Below, one piece after another: positions 39,736 through 48,199 of a stretch of 64,000 nucleotides of DNA. The stretch is from Pseudomonadota bacterium (GTDB taxonomy: Bacteria > Pseudomonadota > Alphaproteobacteria > Rhizobiales > Beijerinckiaceae), in assembly GCA_020161575.1 (NCBI GenBank), contig JAIUNR010000004.1, positions 62,001 through 126,000 on the forward strand. The letters are read 5' to 3'. The notes under the pieces were generated by a model that saw only the letters and a program-made list of their open reading frames with translations, ran no database searches and was not told the DNA's origin. The translations under genes and the position numbers were made by a program. How positions within the stretch are numbered: the stretch's first letter is position 1; every line of letters starts with the position of its first letter.

Positions 39736-40662
39736 TCAGCCCTCATCGTTAAGCGGATGAAGGTCGCGGACCATGGCCTTGGCCCGTTCATCGAGCACAT
39801 GGGTATAGATCTGCGTCGTCGCGATATCGGCATGGCCGAGCAATTGCTGCACAATCCGCAGGTCCGCCCCGTTCTGGAGAAGATGGGTGGCGAAAGCGTG
39901 CCGCAACACATGCGGTGACAGGGCCTCCACCTTCAGACCCGCGAGCCCCGCCAGCCTTTTAAGCTCGCGGGCGAAAACCTGCCTGGCAAGATGCCCCGTC
40001 TCCCCTTCCGCCGGAAAAAGGAATTTCGGTGCTGGCCCGGCCTGGCCCTCCTCCAGCGCGGCGCGATAGGCACGCACCGCCTCGCGCGCACCCTGCGTGA
40101 CCAGCACGAGCCGCTCCTTGCCGCCCTTGCCACGAATGACCAGCGCGTCCCGGGCCGAGGAAAAACTCTGCGCCGGCAGCGCGACCAGTTCGGAAACGCG
40201 CAGGCCGGTCGCGTAGAGCAGCTCGACCAGCGCCACCAGACGCAGCGCCAAAAGTTTCGCGCGCGGCGTTTTCGCGCGCGCCACCTCCGCTGTCACCGCG
40301 CCGAGAAGCCGGTCGACATCCTCGACACTCATCACCTTGGGGAGACTGGCGGCTTTCTTTGGCCCTTCGAGCGTGACGGTGGGGTCATCGCCGCGCAATC
40401 CTTCGGCATAAAGGAAACCATGAAACTGCCGGATCGCGGAAAGGCGCCGCGCGATGGTGGACGCCTTGAGGCCATCGGATGCGAATTGGCGCGCCAGCAT
40501 ACGGATCGTGCCGATATCCACGGTCTCGACATCGCTTCCCGCAGCCGCCAGACGCTCGATGTAATCGTCGAGATCGCGCCGATAGGCATCGAGCGTGTTC
40601 TTCGCCGCGCCGCGCTCGGCGGCGAGCATCGCAAGAAAAGCGCGCAGAAGGCGCGCGCTCAC
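39736..40662 (-). CDS. xerD: Site-specific tyrosine recombinase XerD
   Basis: With XerC, this recombinase resolves chromosome dimers at dif. The 308-residue product has a SAM-like DNA-binding N domain and the catalytic residues R155 (ATGLRVSEL), K near 182 (GKGGKERL), H251 and R254 (HVLRHAFATHLL), H277 (LGHADI) and Y286 (QIYTHV). The GTG at 40662 overlaps the stop of the small membrane-protein gene (GTGA), which fixes the start. The position away from mobile-element genes supports XerD rather than an integrase. Confidence 0.9.
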   Translation of the reverse strand: MSARLLRAFLAMLAAERGAAKNTLDAYRRDLDDYIERLAAAGSDVETVDIGTIRMLARQFASDGLKASTIARRLSAIRQFHGFLYAEGLRGDDPTVTLEGPKKAASLPKVMSVEDVDRLLGAVTAEVARAKTPRAKLLALRLVALVELLYATGLRVSELVALPAQSFSSARDALVIRGKGGKERLVLVTQGAREAVRAYRAALEEGQAGPAPKFLFPAEGETGHLARQVFARELKRLAGLAGLKVEALSPHVLRHAFATHLLQNGADLRIVQQLLGHADIATTQIYTHVLDERAKAMVRDLHPLNDEG

Positions 40663-40805
40663 GGCGCTTCCCGCTTCGGATTGGGCAGGATATGCGTGAT
40701 CTCGCGTTGCTCGGGCTCGACAAGCGCGCCCAGCGCATAGAGCGCGCCGTAGGCAATGCCGACGAGGACTGCGATCACGAGCAGGACACGCAGAAGAAAC
40801 ATCAT
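40659..40805 (-). CDS. Small single-pass membrane protein upstream of xerD
   Basis: A 48-residue frame encodes one hydrophobic helix (FLLRVLLVIAVLVGIAYGALYALG) followed by a short polar tail ending LPNPKREAP. GGAT lies seven bases before the ATG at 40805, and the stop overlaps the xerD GTG as GTGA, so it is co-translated with xerD. Small membrane peptides occur at this position, between aroK and xerD, in related bacteria. Its function is unknown. Confidence 0.65.
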   Translation of the reverse strand: MMFLLRVLLVIAVLVGIAYGALYALGALVEPEQREITHILPNPKREAP

Positions 40806-40959
40806 GGGCTGGATCCGGGTTTGGTTCCTTATCCCGTCGCAATGGCTTGATGGCAAGCCCGATCTCCCCCTTCCCGGCGCAGGGCATAATGAAAAGGGTG
40901 GTAATTCGTTCTGGATTTTGCATTAGCTGACGCAACAAATATCGAACACCGAAAACCCG

Positions 40960-41571
40960 ATGACCGAAGCGCCCGCGACGCCGGCGCAAGCCGGCGATGC
41001 CCGGTTGCCCCAGCGTCTCAAAAACCTGTTGAATGACCGCCATATCGTCCTGATCGGGCTGATGGGCGCGGGCAAGACCTCCGTGGGCAAGCGCCTGGCC
41101 CAGCGCCTCGACCTGCCTTTCGTCGATTCCGATCACGCGATCGAAGAGGCGGCGCGCATGAGCATTCCCGAGATCTTCGCCAACCGGGGCGAGGCGGAAT
41201 TCCGCGCCGGCGAGAGAAAGGTCATCGCCCGGCTGCTTTCAGGCCGCCAGCATGTGATCGCGACCGGCGGCGGCGCCTATATGGACGAGCAGACGCGCCA
41301 GCACATTCGCGAAAGCGCCGTCTCGATCTGGCTCAAGGCCGACCTTCCGGTCCTCATGAAGCGCGTGCTGCGCCGGCCGACGCGCCCCCTGCTCCAGACG
41401 CCCGATCCCGAGGGCACGATGCGTGCCTTGATGGAGAAGCGCTACCCGGTCTATGCCGAGGCCGACGTGACGGTGCTGAGCGAAGAAAGCACGCATGAAA
41501 CAGCCGTTCAGGCCGTGATCGACGCGCTTGACGCGCATCTCTCCGGCGCGAAGGGTGAAGAGGAAAGCTGA
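40960..41571 (+). CDS. aroK: Shikimate kinase
   Basis: The enzyme phosphorylates shikimate in the chorismate pathway. The 203-residue protein has Walker A GLMGAGKTS (33-41), DSDHAIEEAA (shikimate-binding DxD), FRAGERKVI and GGGAYMDEQTR. It carries about 28 extra N-terminal residues compared with short AroK proteins. aroB starts one base after its stop, so the two are one operon. Confidence 0.94.
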   Translation: MTEAPATPAQAGDARLPQRLKNLLNDRHIVLIGLMGAGKTSVGKRLAQRLDLPFVDSDHAIEEAARMSIPEIFANRGEAEFRAGERKVIARLLSGRQHVIATGGGAYMDEQTRQHIRESAVSIWLKADLPVLMKRVLRRPTRPLLQTPDPEGTMRALMEKRYPVYAEADVTVLSEESTHETAVQAVIDALDAHLSGAKGEEES

Positions 41572-41572
41572 C

Positions 41573-42694
41573 ATGCAGAACCATGCGGCGCAAAAGATCC
41601 GCGTCGAACTTGCCGAGCGGAGCTACGACATCCTCATCGGCCGGGGCCTCATCCCGCAGGCGGGAGAGGCCATCAGGGCCGCGACCGGCGCGCGCGCTTG
41701 CCTTATCATCACCGACAGCAACCTCGCCATCCATCATCTGCCCGCGCTCCGCACCTCGGTGGAGCAGGCCGGAATCAGCGTCACCGTGCTCGAATTGCCG
41801 GCGGGCGAGAAGACAAAATCCTGGCCGTTCCTCGAACAAGGCGTAGAGGCCATTCTCGGCGCGAAGCTTGAGCGCGGCGATATCGTCATCGCGCTCGGCG
41901 GCGGGGTGATCGGCGATCTGGCCGGATTCGCCGCCGCCATCGCGCGGCGCGGCATGCGTTTCGTGCAGGTTCCGACCTCCCTGCTGGCGCAGGTCGATTC
42001 CTCCGTCGGCGGCAAGACCGGAATCAACTCACCGCTGGGCAAGAACCTTGTCGGCGCCTTCCATCAGCCCGCGCTGGTGCTGGCCGATAGCGGCGCGCTC
42101 GACACGCTTTCGCCGCGCGAGATGCGCGCGGGCTATGCGGAAGTGGTCAAATACGGGCTGATCGACCGCCCGGATTTCTTTGAATGGCTGGAAGCCGGCG
42201 CCTGGCGCGGCATTTTCGAAGGCGGCCCGGAGCGCGAGAAGGCAATCGCGATTTCCTGCGGCGCGAAAGCCGCCATCGTTGCGCGCGACGAAACCGAGAC
42301 CGGCGATCGCGCCTTGCTCAATCTCGGCCACACTTTCGGCCATGCGCTGGAAGCTCTGGTGAATTACGACGGGGCACGGCTGGTTCACGGCGAAGGTGTC
42401 GCCATCGGCATGGCGATGGCGCATCGCTTCTCGCAAAGGCTCGGCCTCTGCGCGCAGGAAGTCCCCAGCCGGGTGGCGGCGCATCTTCAGGCCGTCGGCC
42501 TGCCCACGCGCCTGTCCGATATTCCGGGCGGCACCGGCAACGCGGATGAAATCCTCGAAGCCATCCGTCAGGACAAGAAGGTAAGCCGCGGCACGCTGAC
42601 CTTTATCCTCACGCGCGGCATCGGCCAGAGTTTCATCGCCAAGAACGTGGCGGAAGCGGATGTTCTCGCCTTCCTGCGTGACGAAAGCCGCTGA
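41573..42694 (+). CDS. aroB: 3-Dehydroquinate synthase
   Basis: AroB makes 3-dehydroquinate from DAHP using NAD and a divalent metal. The 373-residue product has LPAGEKTKSW, ALGGGVIGDLAGFAAA, QVPTSLLAQVDSSVGGKTGIN, MRAGYAEVVKYGLI and NLGHTFGHALEAL with the metal histidines. The ATG at 41573 follows aroK by one base. The last ~80 bases (from 42612) have a diverged second copy at 43976-44058, beyond the sensor gene, so this 3' end may have been exchanged or duplicated. Confidence 0.95.
   Translation: MQNHAAQKIRVELAERSYDILIGRGLIPQAGEAIRAATGARACLIITDSNLAIHHLPALRTSVEQAGISVTVLELPAGEKTKSWPFLEQGVEAILGAKLERGDIVIALGGGVIGDLAGFAAAIARRGMRFVQVPTSLLAQVDSSVGGKTGINSPLGKNLVGAFHQPALVLADSGALDTLSPREMRAGYAEVVKYGLIDRPDFFEWLEAGAWRGIFEGGPEREKAIAISCGAKAAIVARDETETGDRALLNLGHTFGHALEALVNYDGARLVHGEGVAIGMAMAHRFSQRLGLCAQEVPSRVAAHLQAVGLPTRLSDIPGGTGNADEILEAIRQDKKVSRGTLTFILTRGIGQSFIAKNVAEADVLAFLRDESR
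42612..42670 (+). repeat. Direct repeat, copy 1 (inside aroB 3' end)
   Basis: This 59-base segment of aroB recurs at 43976-44034 in the same orientation with three mismatches. It begins with CGCGCGGC, the 8 bases at which the second copy is joined to an exporter-gene fragment. Confidence 0.9.
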
Positions 42695-42703
42695 ACCCCG
42701 CTC

Positions 42704-43816
42704 TCACGCCGCGCGAGCCGAAACTCCCGCCGCGGCCTTCAGCTCTGCCAAACGCTTCGCCATCTCGACAAGCGACAGGCTGATATCCGTCGTCGCGGGT
42801 AATTGCTCCTCGATCGAGCTTTGCAGCGATACCGCGCTCTGCTTGAGCTGCGCGATTCGCGCACCGGCCTCTCGAACCATGCCGATCGCGGCCGTGATCT
42901 GCTGGGCGGCCTCGTTGCATTTGGCATTCATGTTGTCCGCCGCGCTTGACGAGGCGTTGGCCAGATTCTTCACCTCTGCCGCCACAACAGAAAAGCCACG
43001 CCCGGCTTCCCCGGCACGCGCCGCCTCGATGGTTGCGTTGAGCGCGAGCAGCTTGGTCTGTCCCGCGACATTCTGGACAAGCGAGACGAATTCCCGGAGC
43101 ATCGCGACCACGCCTTGCATGGAATCGATCTCCGCCAGCAATGTCTCCATCGATCCCGTCACACTCTGGCTTGCGCTCTCGTTCTCTACCGCGATCTTGT
43201 TGATCGCGCGTGCCTGCTCGGTGACATTTGAGGCCGTCTCGGCGACCTTGTTCAGGCGTGTGCCGATATTGGTATCGAATTCCATGAACACCCGGCGGAG
43301 CGCATCCTGGGTCTGCTTCTCGAAGAACGCGCCATCATAAGCTTTGATCGCCGCCGAAAGCTCGATGAAAAAGGCTCTTAACGCCAGCGAGACATGCTCG
43401 CCCACCTCTTTGCCCTGTGCGCCCAGAAGGCGCTCAAGCAACGCCTCGATGTAGCGCTCCACGATAATCTGGCTGCTGGCGACGTAGAGATCGCTGGAAA
43501 TACCGCAGCGCGCATGGGCCTGACCGATACGCTCGGCATTCCCGAGCGCCTTCTGGTGATTGCCGGAGAAGAAGGCCTCCCATTGCTCGAATTGGATCGA
43601 GTTGACCTGTCCGACCAGCTGTTCCGCGGTGATGTTCTTCGCGGCACAAAAGTCCTGGATGATCTTGAGCATCGAGGGAATGGCCAGAACGCGCCCGTAG
43701 AAGGCGCCCATGATATCCTCGCGATGTACACGCATCACGTCGAGACAGGTTTCAACCACTTCTGGTCGGTCGCGCTGCGTGGCGATCAACGCCTCGATAT
43801 CTCCCAGATGTGCCAT
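42704..43816 (-). CDS. Soluble globin-coupled sensor with chemoreceptor signalling domain
   Basis: Residues about 20-160 form a globin-coupled-sensor haem domain, with FEQWEAFFSG and the proximal histidine H101 in RIGQAHARCGISSDLY. After a helical linker, the MCP signalling hairpin spans about 253-286 (QTKLLALNATIEAARAG, FSVVAAEVKNLA). No membrane segment is present, so it is a cytosolic, HemAT-like oxygen sensor. The ATG at 43816 is chosen for its GAGGAG site seven bases upstream and gives 370 residues. No che genes are near. Duplicated gene ends flank it, and the AT-rich upstream region differs from its neighbours, both suggesting acquisition by recombination. Confidence 0.85.
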   Translation of the reverse strand: MAHLGDIEALIATQRDRPEVVETCLDVMRVHREDIMGAFYGRVLAIPSMLKIIQDFCAAKNITAEQLVGQVNSIQFEQWEAFFSGNHQKALGNAERIGQAHARCGISSDLYVASSQIIVERYIEALLERLLGAQGKEVGEHVSLALRAFFIELSAAIKAYDGAFFEKQTQDALRRVFMEFDTNIGTRLNKVAETASNVTEQARAINKIAVENESASQSVTGSMETLLAEIDSMQGVVAMLREFVSLVQNVAGQTKLLALNATIEAARAGEAGRGFSVVAAEVKNLANASSSAADNMNAKCNEAAQQITAAIGMVREAGARIAQLKQSAVSLQSSIEEQLPATTDISLSLVEMAKRLAELKAAAGVSARAA

Positions 43817-43955
43817 CCCAGGCTCCTCTTCTTGGATCCAGAAGCCCGGAATCTGCGTAACATTGTTTTGAAAATTGTTAACCATGCCGAAAATCCATCG
43901 TCGGCTATCTTGCATTAAAAAAAAGATGCGTTTTCACAAAAACCCGCTTCTCGCC

Positions 43956-43983
43956 TCAAACCGGCGCGATCTCGTCGCGCGGC
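43956..43983 (-). pseudogene. Fragment of the 3' end of the glucan exporter gene
   Basis: The 29 bases 43955-43983 match 44627-44655, the 3' end of the ABC exporter gene, with two mismatches and in the same orientation. Read on the minus strand they encode PRDEIAPV and a stop, against PRDEMAPV in the intact gene. The match ends at CGCGCGGC, where the aroB fragment begins. Confidence 0.8.
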
Positions 43984-44058
43984 ATCGGCCAGAGCTTCAT
44001 CGCCAAGAACGTGGCGGAAGCGTATGCTCTCGCCCTTGTGAAGACAGAAAGCGCCTAG
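43976..44058 (+). pseudogene. Fragment of the 3' end of aroB (direct repeat copy 2)
   Basis: This fragment encodes RGIGQSFIAKNVAEAYALAL...ESA and a stop, in frame with the aroB C terminus (RGIGQSFIAKNVAEADVLAF...ESR). The first 59 bases differ from aroB at three positions; the last 24 are more diverged. It has no start codon and is a remnant. It is fused at its 5' end to the exporter-gene fragment. Confidence 0.85.
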
Positions 44059-44082
44059 ATGTGGAGCATCAACAGCAGGCGA

Positions 44083-44616
44083 TCACACCCGATCCAGCTT
44101 CTGATACGGCTCGGGCGGGAGAGTGAGGGCGACCCCGTCCTGCGGCGAGACCAGCCCGCCCTTGTGCACGATCCCCATCACCCCCGCCTTGCGGATAAGG
44201 TTTCCCGCGCTGTCACGGTCAAGCACGGCCTTGAGCAGGCCGGGGCGGAAGGCATCGATCTGGGCGCAGGGATTGCGCAGTCCGGTGATCTCGATGATCG
44301 CCTCGCCGATCTGAAGCAAGGCGCCGCGCGGCAAGCCGAGCAGATCCATGCCGGCGGTTGTGATATTCTCGCCCAGATCGCCAGGCCGGATTTCGAATCC
44401 TTTCAGGCGTAACTCCTCGAAGAGCTCCGCATGGAGGAGGTGGATCTGCCTCAGATTGGGCTGGCTCGGATCGACAGCAACGCGCGAGCGGTGCTTCACC
44501 GTCACGCCGCGATGGGCATCGCCCTCCACGCCCTCGCCCGCGACAAGGCGGACGGCGGCGCGCGGCGCCTTGGAGAAAGCGTGACCTTCATTGGCATGCA
44601 CCGCGACAACCCGCAT
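44083..44616 (-). CDS. MOSC-domain protein, YiiM-like
   Basis: The 177-residue protein is a compact MOSC domain: GVEGDAHRGVTVKHRSR, QIHLLHAELFEEL, GDLGENITTAGMDLLGLP and the conserved cysteine in TGLRNPCAQIDAF. It probably binds or transfers sulfur to molybdenum cofactor or acts on N-hydroxylated compounds; the specific role is unknown. The ATG at 44616 follows a strong GGAGAGG site. It lies 11 bases after the exporter stop on the same strand and 24 bases past the aroB remnant. Confidence 0.85.
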   Translation of the reverse strand: MRVVAVHANEGHAFSKAPRAAVRLVAGEGVEGDAHRGVTVKHRSRVAVDPSQPNLRQIHLLHAELFEELRLKGFEIRPGDLGENITTAGMDLLGLPRGALLQIGEAIIEITGLRNPCAQIDAFRPGLLKAVLDRDSAGNLIRKAGVMGIVHKGGLVSPQDGVALTLPPEPYQKLDRV

Positions 44617-44627
44617 GACCTCTCCTC

Positions 44628-46403
44628 TCAAACCGGCGCCATCTCATCGCGCGGCGGCGCCATGAACTGCGCGGCCGCGAGGGCGGCGAAGCGGCCGTTC
44701 TTCGCCACGAGTTCATCGAAACTGCCCTGCTCGATTACCCGTCCCTGATCGAGGACGAGGATATGATCCGCATTGCGAATCGTGGCGAGGCGATGGGCGA
44801 TCACGAAGGTGGTTCGCCCCTTCATCACCTCTTCCAGCGCTTTCTGGAGCTTCTGCTCCGTCGTCGCATCCAGCGCGGAGGTCGCCTCGTCGAGGATGAG
44901 GATCGGCGGATTTTTCAGCAGCGCCCGCGCGATGGACAGGCGCTGGCGCTCCCCACCCGAGAGCGAGCGCCCGCGCTCGCCGACGATCGTGCTCAGCCCA
45001 TCCGCCTGCCGCCCGATGAATTCGAGCGCCTGCGCCCGCTCAAGCGCGTCCATCATCTCGGCATCGGTGGCATCCGCCCGGCCAACTCGAAGATTCTCGT
45101 GGATCGTGCGGGCGAAAAGCATCGGCTCCTGAAAGACCACCGCGATATTGCGCCGCAGGGATTGCAGGGTGAAATCGCGGATATCCTGACCGTCGATGAG
45201 AATGCGCCCCGATTGCGGATCGAAGGCCCGGTGAAGCAACCCCAGCGTGGTCGACTTACCCGACCCCGTGGCCCCCACCAACGCGATGGTCTTGCCCTTA
45301 AGCGCCGTGAAGGAAAGATCGGCGATCGCGGGGCGTTTGCCATCGTAGGAGAAGGAGACGTTCTCGAACGTCACCTCGCCCGAGAGCTGCCCGGCATCCG
45401 TGGCGTTCGGCTTATCCTGGACTTGGGGTGTCGTATCGAGGATCTCGAAGAATTCGCGCAGCTTGGGCGCCTGCATGAAGAGCTGGTTCACGAAACCGAC
45501 CGCGGCTTCCAGCTTGCCGATCAGCAAGGTCGCATAGCCCATGAAGGTGACGATATCGCCGATTGTCGCCTTGTCATGAATGTGAAGCCAGGTGCCGAGA
45601 AGGAAGATCGAGGTCACGGTCAGCGTCGATGAGGCGCGCGTGGCGACCGAAGCGAGCGCCCACCACGAGAGGACCGGAATCTGTGCCGAGAGCAGGCGGT
45701 CGATCACGTGGCGGAGCTGGGACAATTCCGCCTGCACCCGCGTGAAGCTCTGGATCACGGGAATATTGCCGATGGCATCGGATGTGTGTTCGGCAAGCTC
45801 TGAATGGTAGCCTTCCACGCGCTCCTGAAGGCTGGCGGCACGGTTCACCACCAGCCCCATCAGGAAGGCGAAGATACAGACCAGGCCCACCAGCAGCAGC
45901 GCCAGCCGCCAGTTGATGAACAACGTGAGCGGCAGAAGGACCAGCAGCGAGATCAGCGCCGAGCAATGATCGCGCAGGAAGCCCAGCCAGAGCCAGAACA
46001 TGCCGCCCGCGCCGTCGAGCATCACCTTGAGTGTACGCCCGGAATGCGTCGCGGAGTGGAAGGAAAGCGGCAGCGTGAGCACATGCTCGAAATAGGAAGC
46101 CATCACGCCCAGCCGGCGGCGATGGGCGATCCGGTCTGCGTGAAGCGCGATTGTCACACCCGAGATGATGGTGAAGAGACCGAAGGTGAGCCACAGGCCG
46201 ATGAGCGGCAGCAGGGCCTCGAGGGAGGGCTTGCCTCCTTGCGCCTGCGCGCCCGTGAGCAGGTTGATGATGCGCCCGAAGAGATAGGGCTCGGCGAACA
46301 TGGCCGCGGCGAGCATGAGATTCGCACTCACCAGGAAGAACCCCAGCCGAAGCTCGGGGCCGAGATGGAAGAGAACGCGAAGATAGAGGCGGGGCAGGGA
46401 CAT
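44628..46403 (-). CDS. ndvA: Glucan ABC exporter, fused permease and ATPase (NdvA/ChvA-like)
   Basis: The 591-residue half-transporter has six membrane helices in residues 1-330 (type I exporter fold) and an ATPase domain with Walker [12 protein letters not shown]-loop [12 protein letters not shown], signature [15 protein letters not shown] and Walker [13 protein letters not shown]. The N-terminal [18 protein letters not shown] and [13 protein letters not shown] match cyclic beta-1,2-glucan exporters of rhizobia. Export of a periplasmic glucan is inferred; no glucan synthase gene is in the window. The ATG at 46403 is preferred over a TTG at 46409. Confidence 0.82.
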
Positions 46404-46480
46404 GAACAAACCCGAATTGGCGCTTGCGCGGGTTATGCCGTGATCGAGATGAACGTCAACTGAGCGCTTTGCACTTAAGC

Positions 46481-46495
46481 TTAACCCTTCCTTTA
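46481..46495 (+). promoter_or_regulatory. Near-consensus CtrA box upstream of motA
   Basis: TTAA-CCCTTCC-TTTA matches the CtrA consensus TTAA-N7-TTAA at 7 of 8 fixed positions and lies 74 bases before the motA start. CtrA controls motility genes in many alphaproteobacteria. Short AT-rich matches occur by chance, so this is tentative. Confidence 0.3.
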
Positions 46496-46568
46496 GCTCA
46501 CGCTCATAGGCTGCGATGCGGGTGCCCTGAAGGGGTGGGTCCTGCTGTACGGCCGGGAGAATTGGTCC

Positions 46569-47345
46569 ATGGATTTAGCCACCATTGTCGGAACCGTGCT
46601 GGGCGTCGCCACCGTCGTCCTGCTGATGCTCATGGACGGTCATGTCAGCATCTACATTTCCGAGCATGCCGCGATCGTGATTTTCGGCGGCGCGACGGCG
46701 TCCACCATCATCCGCTATCCGTTCTCGACCATGATGCATGGCCTGCCGATGGGTATGAAGTTCGCGCTTCAGATGCGTGCGCTCGATCCGCGCGCGCTGA
46801 TCGAGGAAATCACAAAGATCGCAGAGATCATGCGCAAATCCGGCCCGATGGCGCTCGAGAATCATAAGGTCGATGACCCCTTTCTCGCGCAGGGCATCCG
46901 CTATGTGGTCGACGGTTATGACGGGGAATTCATCAAGAGCACGATGGAGAAGGACCGCGACACCTTCCTTGCCCATCTCGATGAAGGCCAGAAGATCTAC
47001 CGCGCCATCGGCGATTGCGCGCCGGCCTGGGGCATGATCGGCACCCTTCTGGGCATGGTCGGCATGTTCGCCAACATGTCGGACCCCTCGACCCTCGGCC
47101 CCTTCATGGCGACCGCGCTGCTCGCGACGCTCTACGGCGCGCTTGTCGCGAATCTGTTCTGCCTCCCGATCGCCGACAAGCTTCATGTGAAGCTGGAGGA
47201 GGAGGATATCTCCCGCTCGCTGATCATTGATGGCGTACTCCAGATCCGCCAGGCAAAAAGCCCCGGCATCATCCGCGAGATGCTGCTCTCCTATCTGCCG
47301 GATCATCACAAGGCGCATTTTGCCGAGCAGGAAGCGGCGGCCTGA
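46569..47345 (+). CDS. motA: MotA/PomA-type stator proton channel subunit
   Basis: The 258-residue protein has four hydrophobic segments ([75 protein letters not shown]), the MotA/TolQ/ExbB layout, with the conserved proline and GTLLGMV segment. PomA/MotA subunits pair with MotB to drive flagellar rotation by ion flow. motB follows 29 bases later, but no other flagellar gene is in the window. Confidence 0.85.
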
Positions 47346-47374
47346 GCGCTGTCACGGTTTGAGGAGTAGCGTCG

Positions 47375-48199
47375 ATGGCGAGAAAAAAGGGCGGGCATTC
47401 GGGCGGGCACGGCTGGTTCGTCACCTTCGCCGACCTCATGGGCCTGCTGCTCGCGTATTTCGTGATGCTCGTCGCGTTTTCGCAGCCTAAAACGAAGGAA
47501 ATGGCCATCGTCGCCGGTTCCATCCGTGAAGCTTTCGGCAGCCAGAAGCATACCCGCACCTCGGGCATGATCGACACCGACGGCGTGCCGGTACGCCGCA
47601 AGATGCATAACGTCGAGAAGACTTCGAAGGACCAGTCGGATTCGGTTTCTCCGCCGGTCAAATATATCCAGCGCGACACGATGGCGGCCGGCACCTTCAT
47701 GACCGATCGTGGCTTCACCACCGCCGCCGCGTCCTTGCGTCAGGCGCTTCAGGCCATGCCGGAAATCGCTGAAATCTCGCGCAATGTCGAGGTCGAGGAA
47801 ACGCCGGAGGGCCTCAACATCCAGATCGTGGATCAGGAGGGGCGCTCGATGTTCCCGGAAGGCTCAGCCCTTCCCTATGAGCGCACCCGCAAGGTGATCG
47901 CGGCGATTTCGCCGGTTCTGCGCCGCATGCCGAACCGCGTTCGCATCACTGGCCATACCAGCGCGATTCGCGGCGCTACCCGCGATCGCGGTGCCGGCTG
48001 GGCGCTTTCAGCCGAACGCGCGATCGCCATCCGAGATATTCTGGCTGGCAGCGGTGTCCCCGATGATCGTTTCGAATCGGTGATCGGCAAGGCCGATACC
48101 ATGCCGGTCTTCCCGGACGATCCTTTCCTCGCGCCCAATCGCCGCGTCGCGATCCTGCTCGTGCGCGAGGCGCCGCCGCTTCCGCCCGAAAAGCCCTGA
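47375..48199 (+). CDS. motB: MotB-type stator subunit with OmpA peptidoglycan-binding domain
   Basis: The 274-residue protein has a short basic N terminus, one membrane helix with the ion-carrying aspartate (FADLMGLLLAYFVMLVAFS), a linker of about 100 residues and an OmpA/MotB domain (RVRITGHTSAIRG, GWALSAERAIAIRD). It anchors the channel formed with MotA to peptidoglycan. It ends 4 bases before the opposing CAP-protein gene. Confidence 0.87.
   Translation: MARKKGGHSGGHGWFVTFADLMGLLLAYFVMLVAFSQPKTKEMAIVAGSIREAFGSQKHTRTSGMIDTDGVPVRRKMHNVEKTSKDQSDSVSPPVKYIQRDTMAAGTFMTDRGFTTAAASLRQALQAMPEIAEISRNVEVEETPEGLNIQIVDQEGRSMFPEGSALPYERTRKVIAAISPVLRRMPNRVRITGHTSAIRGATRDRGAGWALSAERAIAIRDILAGSGVPDDRFESVIGKADTMPVFPDDPFLAPNRRVAILLVREAPPLPPEKP

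What the first reader, a model, noticed from the sequence alone, without database searches (positions are those of the whole stretch)
42604..44660. Scar of a fragment insertion: aroB and exporter 3' ends duplicated and fused at an 8-bp microhomology around a sensor gene
The order is aroB (intact), globin sensor, a 29-base copy of the glucan exporter 3' end (43955-43983, 27 of 29 identical to 44627-44655), a copy of the aroB 3' end (43976-44058, first 59 bases 56 of 59 identical to 42612-42670), MOSC gene, exporter (intact). The two fragments meet exactly at CGCGCGGC (43976-43983). That 8-mer occurs in both intact genes at the matching place; left of it the scar follows the exporter (T), right of it aroB (A). 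A simple explanation is homology-facilitated illegitimate recombination: a donor piece aroB-sensor-exporter end recombined by homology in aroB and closed by microhomology at its other end. A tandem duplication with later loss of one gene from each unit would look similar. The mismatches between copies suggest a related but different donor.
Basis: partly seen in the sequence, partly recalled or inferred. Interest (0 to 1): 0.85.

Follow-up and report, generated by a model that had tools for sequence, protein, structure and literature searches.

The report
Recombination scar between aroB and exporter
Two extra genes sit between two neighbouring genes that nearly touch end to end in related bacteria, and a short fused copy of both gene ends between them records how they came together, by an ordinary kind of DNA joining at an 8-letter match.

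Summary
Between the globin-sensor gene and the MOSC gene lies a fused pair of gene-end copies: the exporter 3' end (27 of 29) and the aroB 3' end (56 of 59, then a diverged tail), meeting at CGCGCGGC. In 15 of 15 other genus genomes that could be compared, aroB and exporter are directly convergent, 15 bp or less apart or with overlapping stops. So the 1.93-kb interval is new in this lineage. The aroB copy matches this genome's own aroB end better than any relative's, so a donor, if any, was the same or a sister species.

The joint is what a tandem-duplication-type or donor-fragment joining at a microhomology leaves. I slightly favour a merger of two close alleles, aroB-sensor-exporter and aroB-MOSC-exporter, by homology on one side and microhomology on the other: each unit is clean, and the second aroB end looks like a real but different aroB end. 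A single-chromosome tandem duplication with reciprocal gene loss is nearly as likely. The deciding strain comparison could not be made. This is a well-resolved example of a known kind, of modest interest.

The parts
41573..42694 (+). aroB (3-dehydroquinate synthase), intact; its 3' end 42612-42694 corresponds to the scar's right half
   Evidence: NCBIfam TIGR01357 over cut-off; repeat
42704..43816 (-). sensor gene: Protoglobin domain plus MCP signalling domain, 370 aa from ATG 43816 (start chosen by me); stop 9 bp past the aroB stop
   Evidence: Pfam PF11563, PF00015; coordinates
43955..43983 (-). copy of the exporter 3' end with its stop codon
   Evidence: 27 of 29 to 44627-44655; stop at 43956-43958
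43976..43983 (.). 8-bp microhomology CGCGCGGC, the joint; also at 42612-42619 and 44648-44655
43976..44058 (+). copy of the aroB 3' end: 56 of 59, then a diverged 24-nt tail ending in an in-frame TAG at the same distance
44083..44616 (-). MOSC-domain gene, 177 aa; start 11 nt after the exporter stop, so probably co-transcribed with the exporter
   Evidence: Pfam PF03473; coordinates and spacer; co-transcription inferred
44628..46409 (-). glucan-export type ABC transporter, intact; its 3' end corresponds to the scar's left half
   Evidence: NCBIfam NF010178 and TIGR01192 over cut-off

Best explanation
The scar is an illegitimate joint, made at an 8-bp microhomology, between the 3' end of one copy of the exporter gene and the 3' end of another copy of aroB. 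Before it formed, the lineage had aroB and exporter directly convergent, as its relatives do. Most likely route (inferred): two close strains had each gained one gene between aroB and exporter, the globin sensor in one and the MOSC gene in the other. A DNA fragment aroB-sensor-exporter end from one entered the other, paired by homology within aroB, and closed at its far end by joining its exporter end to the resident aroB end at CGCGCGGC. The result is aroB, sensor, fused remnants, MOSC, exporter, with both flanking genes intact. Shown: the structure, the joint, the empty state in relatives, and that the aroB copy is nearest to this genome's own aroB. Inferred: two alleles, DNA uptake, order of events. 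The scar itself probably has no function.
For: Structure and joint. Empty site, gap -4 to +15 bp, in 15 of 15 other genus members that have both genes beside each other; the remaining one of 17 genomes (G007) gave no aroB match. No close MOSC relative in the genus (one 31% match in 16 others). No close relative of this sensor in the genus; three members (G007, G009, G010) carry sensors of the same globin-plus-signalling make-up at only 25-27% identity, on contigs other than those of aroB where aroB was found. The aroB copy differs from intact aroB at 16 of 83 positions and from each of 15 relatives at 26 or more (ungapped, and 6 of the 15 have longer tails). The two units are complementary and clean: each holds one whole gene between a whole aroB stop and a whole exporter stop, which a merger of alleles gives for free. 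The copy's tail is an aroB-type end but not the present one, as expected of a second allele. No Ku gene was found in the genome, so Ku-dependent end joining is not expected. A ComEC-type uptake protein is present, but also in 10 of 14 control genomes, so this is weak.
Against: No genome carrying either single-gene allele was found. Homology-facilitated illegitimate recombination is rare (stated in PMC5361080, passages read). The near-identity of the first 59 bases and the divergence of the last 24 (3 of 59 against 13 of 24) are odd for any single divergence time. Nine relatives with the stop at the same offset show 14-21 of 59 and 7-10 of 24 against intact aroB, so no such contrast. Sliding identity of aroB to 8 relatives shows no switch near the scar. 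There is a hint farther up: L092 is nearest in the first 150 bases (0.67) and falls to 0.61-0.67 in the last third, where L085-L088 stay at 0.74-0.85. No tree was built and the relatives are too distant to use this.
Confidence: 0.45

Rival explanations
1. Tandem duplication with reciprocal loss on one chromosome. The ancestor had both genes between aroB and exporter. The block from the aroB end to the exporter end was duplicated in tandem by joining at CGCGCGGC. Then the MOSC copy was lost from the first unit and the sensor copy from the second, leaving the novel joint between the survivors.
For: The joint is exactly the novel joint of such a duplication. Spontaneous tandem duplications by illegitimate recombination, some at short GC-rich matches, are documented in bacteria (PMC11111574, passages read). 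Needs no donor. The sequence beside the exporter copy shares AACCCGC with the start of MOSC, but this is not beyond chance (0.05 to 0.47 against window background for spans of 20 to 40 bases).
Against: Needs two large deletions, both ending within about 25 bp of a gene end that is under no constraint. No significant remnant of either lost copy was detected in the flanks. Does not explain the clustered divergence of the aroB tail.
Confidence: 0.3
2. Small duplication first. In the empty ancestor the two CGCGCGGC copies lay in direct orientation, about 99-118 bp apart if the gap was as in the relatives. Slippage duplicated that stretch, giving a spare exporter end and aroB end. This made room between two genes whose stops otherwise nearly touch, and the sensor and MOSC genes later inserted on either side of the spare ends.
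For: Slippage between 8-bp direct repeats this close is an easy event (recalled knowledge; spacing computed). It would explain why this genome alone of the 16 in its genus with both genes in place has inserts there.
Against: Both insertions must hit the few intergenic bases and spare the 104 bp of remnant. Does not explain the aroB tail.
Confidence: 0.15
3. A mobile element or site-specific integration at the aroB 3' end, with the repeat as attachment sites.
For: A gene 3' end is duplicated on both sides of a gained gene.
Against: The two gained genes are a sensor and a MOSC protein, with no integrase or transposase match (the other small open frames were not scanned). It explains no exporter copy fused at a microhomology. 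A possible 13-base flanking repeat of the sensor segment is weak (0.01-0.03 by four controls).
Confidence: 0.04
4. Assembly artefact.
For: Repeats can mislead assemblers; reads were not available.
Against: The copies are short (29 and 83 bp) and differ from their originals in both halves, so reads would be expected to span and tell them apart (inference).
Confidence: 0.02

Closest known systems
Homology-facilitated illegitimate recombination (Acinetobacter, Streptococcus pneumoniae, Pseudomonas stutzeri: passages of PMC2884548; E. coli conjugation: PMC3240628, start of abstract in the listing)
   Same: Would give a gained segment with a homologous gene on one side and an illegitimate joint on the other
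   Different: Here only the end product is seen; donor, uptake and homologous crossover are not demonstrated
Vibrio cholerae T6SS immunity-gene arrays with displaced effector 3' ends (PMC5361080, passages read)
   Same: Natural arrays in which a gene end is shifted back by an incoming module; the authors propose a similar mechanism
   Different: There many strains document the steps (one step is not seen in an extant strain); here one genome, with both flanking gene ends duplicated and fused at a base-resolved joint
Microhomology tandem duplications in bacteria (PMC11111574, passages read)
   Same: Novel joint at a short GC-rich match
   Different: Here any duplicated unit is no longer present as a repeat; only the joint and gene ends remain
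Tandem duplication and random loss, applied to animal mitochondrial gene order (PMC3283314, search listing only; content otherwise recalled)
   Same: Predicts remnants at the junction of two surviving genes (recalled)
   Different: Loss of copies is not demonstrated here

Membership tests
Homology-facilitated illegitimate recombination | illegitimate joint on one side, here at a short match | tested here: met
   CGCGCGGC, 8 bp; the flanks switch from exporter to aroB exactly there
Homology-facilitated illegitimate recombination | homologous crossover in the gene on the other side | tested here: inconclusive
   no ancestry switch near the scar along aroB against 8 relatives, which are too distant to decide
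Homology-facilitated illegitimate recombination | gained segment absent from relatives at that site | tested here: met
   15 of 15 empty sites
Homology-facilitated illegitimate recombination | a donor allele aroB-sensor-exporter exists | tested here: inconclusive
   none in the species-level collections searched; same-species strains not available
Tandem duplication with reciprocal loss | novel joint between the right end and the left end of one unit | tested here: met
   exporter end followed by aroB end
Tandem duplication with reciprocal loss | remnants of the lost gene copies | tested here: inconclusive
   no significant similarity in the flanks; clean deletions would leave none
Integrative mobile element | integrase or transposase within the gained segment | tested here: not met
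   the two gained genes are a sensor and a MOSC protein; other small open frames not scanned

The most novel reading that the evidence does not exclude
The tightly convergent aroB-exporter pair serves as a serial gene-capture site. Each new gene arrives with fresh copies of both gene ends and closes at a microhomology, so neither flanking gene is harmed. In other genera of the family the same interval holds different minus-strand accessory genes, which would be earlier captures by the same route with the scars since lost.
Probability: 0.08. Interest if true: 0.5.

Novelty: new member of a known kind. Interest (0 to 1): 0.3.

Why it matters
A scar that keeps both gene ends and the exact joint of a gene gain can be read from a single genome. 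If the allele-merger reading is right, this is a natural fossil of homology-assisted capture in an environmental alphaproteobacterium, resolved to the base. It also shows how a gene can enter between two genes whose stops nearly touch without harming either. It opens no new class of system.

Tried and rejected
Remnants of lost gene copies beside the scar: not significant. Repeat flanking the sensor segment: 0.01-0.03 by four controls, post hoc, not used. A source elsewhere in the window for the 17 bases CTTGTGAAGACAGAAAG of the diverged tail (up to 3 mismatches): none but itself. Promoter and terminator consensus scan of 42500-44800: none. Folding of the scar: minus strand z -2.05, plus strand z -0.21, not strong enough for a function claim. 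Plasmid search with 42604-44660: 478 records match; the 20 listed match only the MOSC part at 70-72%, the other 458 were not seen. Sensor protein on plasmids: no match at 1e-30. Other family members: I chose 20 genomes in which searches listed both genes on one contig (both lists are truncated, so this is not a random sample). Of these 20 intervals 18 are 1.27-4.9 kb, one 164 bp, one 13 bp; none of 20 holds a MOSC or sensor match and none of the 19 longer than 60 bp shows a scar. It also put the slippage unit at 126-130 bp; it is 99-118 bp. Neither change moved the odds.
Full report
OBSERVATION. The sequence is as described. The exporter-end copy is 43955-43983 (27 of 29) and the aroB-end copy 43976-44034 (56 of 59); they overlap in CGCGCGGC. 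In the whole genome, 131 bases around the scar match only themselves, the aroB end and the exporter end. A shared run of 8 or more at a random joint has probability about 2e-4 if bases are independent; the 8-mer is frequent in this window (24 and 22 copies on the two strands), so the true chance is higher. The aroB copy continues to an in-frame TAG at the same distance as the intact gene's TGA, but its last 24 bases differ at 13 places while the first 59 differ at 3 (Fisher 1.6e-6). Its last 12 bases match the aroB ends of L089, L092 and L098 at 11 of 12; 0 of 1,214 other window 12-mers ending in a stop match any of 9 relatives so well. Lengths 9, 15 and 24 were also tried, and 20, 12 and 7 of 1,214 equal them. 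So the tail is very probably an aroB-type end, not MOSC flank.

SETTING. The genes are aroK, aroB, a Protoglobin-MCP sensor, the scar, a MOSC protein and a glucan-export type ABC transporter (aroK by position and recall, not scanned). Sensor and MOSC frames have no internal stop. The sensor stop lies 9 bp past the aroB stop. The MOSC start lies 11 nt after the exporter stop, so those two may be one transcript (inferred).

EMPTY SITE. Of 17 genomes held for the genus, 16 gave an aroB match: the window's own and 15 others. In all 15 others (L085-L099) aroB and the exporter are directly convergent, with gaps from -4 (overlapping stops) to +15 bp. The window has 1933 bp there. Coordinates show that the named records Beijerinckiaceae bacterium X3_MetaBAT.31 and Rhizobiales bacterium SYSU XM002 are genomes G004 and G005 of this genus.

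THE TWO GENES. The MOSC gene matches 82 of 298 family genomes at E 1e-20 or better, the own one included; the others have 67% identity or less. In the 19 other such loci that were fetched (up to about 1.5 kb each side) it is not beside aroB or this exporter; two have a 25-26% match to a different ABC transporter. In the genus it has one 31% match. The sensor has no match at E 1e-40 among 297 other family genomes (up to 6 candidates scored per genome) and none at 1e-35 among 384 other class genomes (up to 4 scored). Its globin part alone gives two weak matches, 23-27% identity, in 289 class genomes. But it is not alone in make-up: six genus members match it at E 1e-20 over the signalling half. 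In three of these (G009, G007, G010) the alignment reaches into the first half at 25-27% identity, and Pfam finds Protoglobin plus MCP signal domains in all three; the other three were not scanned. So this is a divergent member of a common kind of sensor, not a copy of the genus's own. G+C at third positions is 0.755 for the sensor and 0.803 for MOSC, within the 0.66-0.83 range of 26 long open frames. The stretch around the sensor's 5' end is the poorest in G+C in the profile of 40000-47500 (0.52).

ORIGIN OF THE COPIES. The aroB copy differs from intact aroB at 16 of 83 bases and from each of 15 relatives at 26 or more (ungapped; 6 of the 15 have longer tails). At position 20 the copy has C like 14 of 15 relatives, and the intact gene has T. 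So the copy is not simply a decayed version of the present gene, and its source was this species or a near sister. The three relatives that share its last 12 bases are not the nearest in the rest of the copy. The 29-base exporter copy was not placed on relatives; exporter tails differ among them.

MECHANISM. Any event that joins an exporter end to an aroB end in direct order gives this structure. Three routes were weighed. (1) Merger of a sensor allele and a MOSC allele by homology on one side and microhomology on the other: each unit is clean and a second aroB tail is expected (0.45). (2) Tandem duplication of a two-gene block with reciprocal loss: needs two clean deletions, and no significant remnants were found (0.30). 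(3) A small slippage duplication of about 99-118 bp followed by two insertions: needs both insertions to hit a few bases (0.15). These weights are judgement. No route explains by itself why the first 59 bases of the copy stayed so alike and the tail did not; later gene conversion over the first part is possible (untested). Ku was not found in the genome and a ComEC-type protein was, which fits but does not discriminate.

WIDER FAMILY. In 20 chosen intervals from other genera, 18 are 1.27-4.9 kb long. One open frame that directly follows aroB was scanned and is a CNNM/CorC-type protein. Minus-strand genes in four others were an alpha/beta hydrolase, a DUF1330 protein, a glyoxalase-type protein and a Rieske-domain protein. 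So the genus may have lost a gene that often follows aroB elsewhere (inferred), and the spot accepts various minus-strand genes. No other scar was seen (0 of 19 intervals longer than 60 bp).

LITERATURE. The mechanism is established (PMC3240628, start of abstract in the listing; PMC2884548, passages). A similar one has been proposed for natural gene arrays with displaced gene ends in Vibrio cholerae (PMC5361080, passages). Tandem duplications by transformation (PMC3784515, passages) and with 9-bp microhomology (PMC11111574, passages) are also known. I searched the literature three times and make no claim that such a scar is unreported.

VERDICT. A real, well-resolved recombination scar of a known kind; the donor story is plausible but unproven.

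Noticed in passing
window 42704-43816: The Protoglobin-MCP sensor is very diverged: three genus members have sensors of the same make-up but only 25-27% identical, elsewhere in their genomes, and the globin half alone has two weak matches (23-27%) among 289 class genomes.
   Followed up: partly
window 42694-44628 and L133-L152: In 18 of 20 chosen genomes of other genera the aroB-exporter interval is 1.27-4.9 kb; the one open frame after aroB that was scanned is CNNM/CorC type, and four varying minus-strand genes were identified; the window's genus may have lost the former.
   Followed up: partly
window 42697-42709 and 43943-43954: Weak direct repeat (CCCGCT..C..GC type) on both sides of the sensor segment, 0.01-0.03 by four controls, possibly the old intergenic spacer.
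   Followed up: partly
window 43940-44080: The minus strand of the scar folds somewhat better than shuffles (z -2.05; 6 of 200 as good), the plus strand does not.
   Followed up: no
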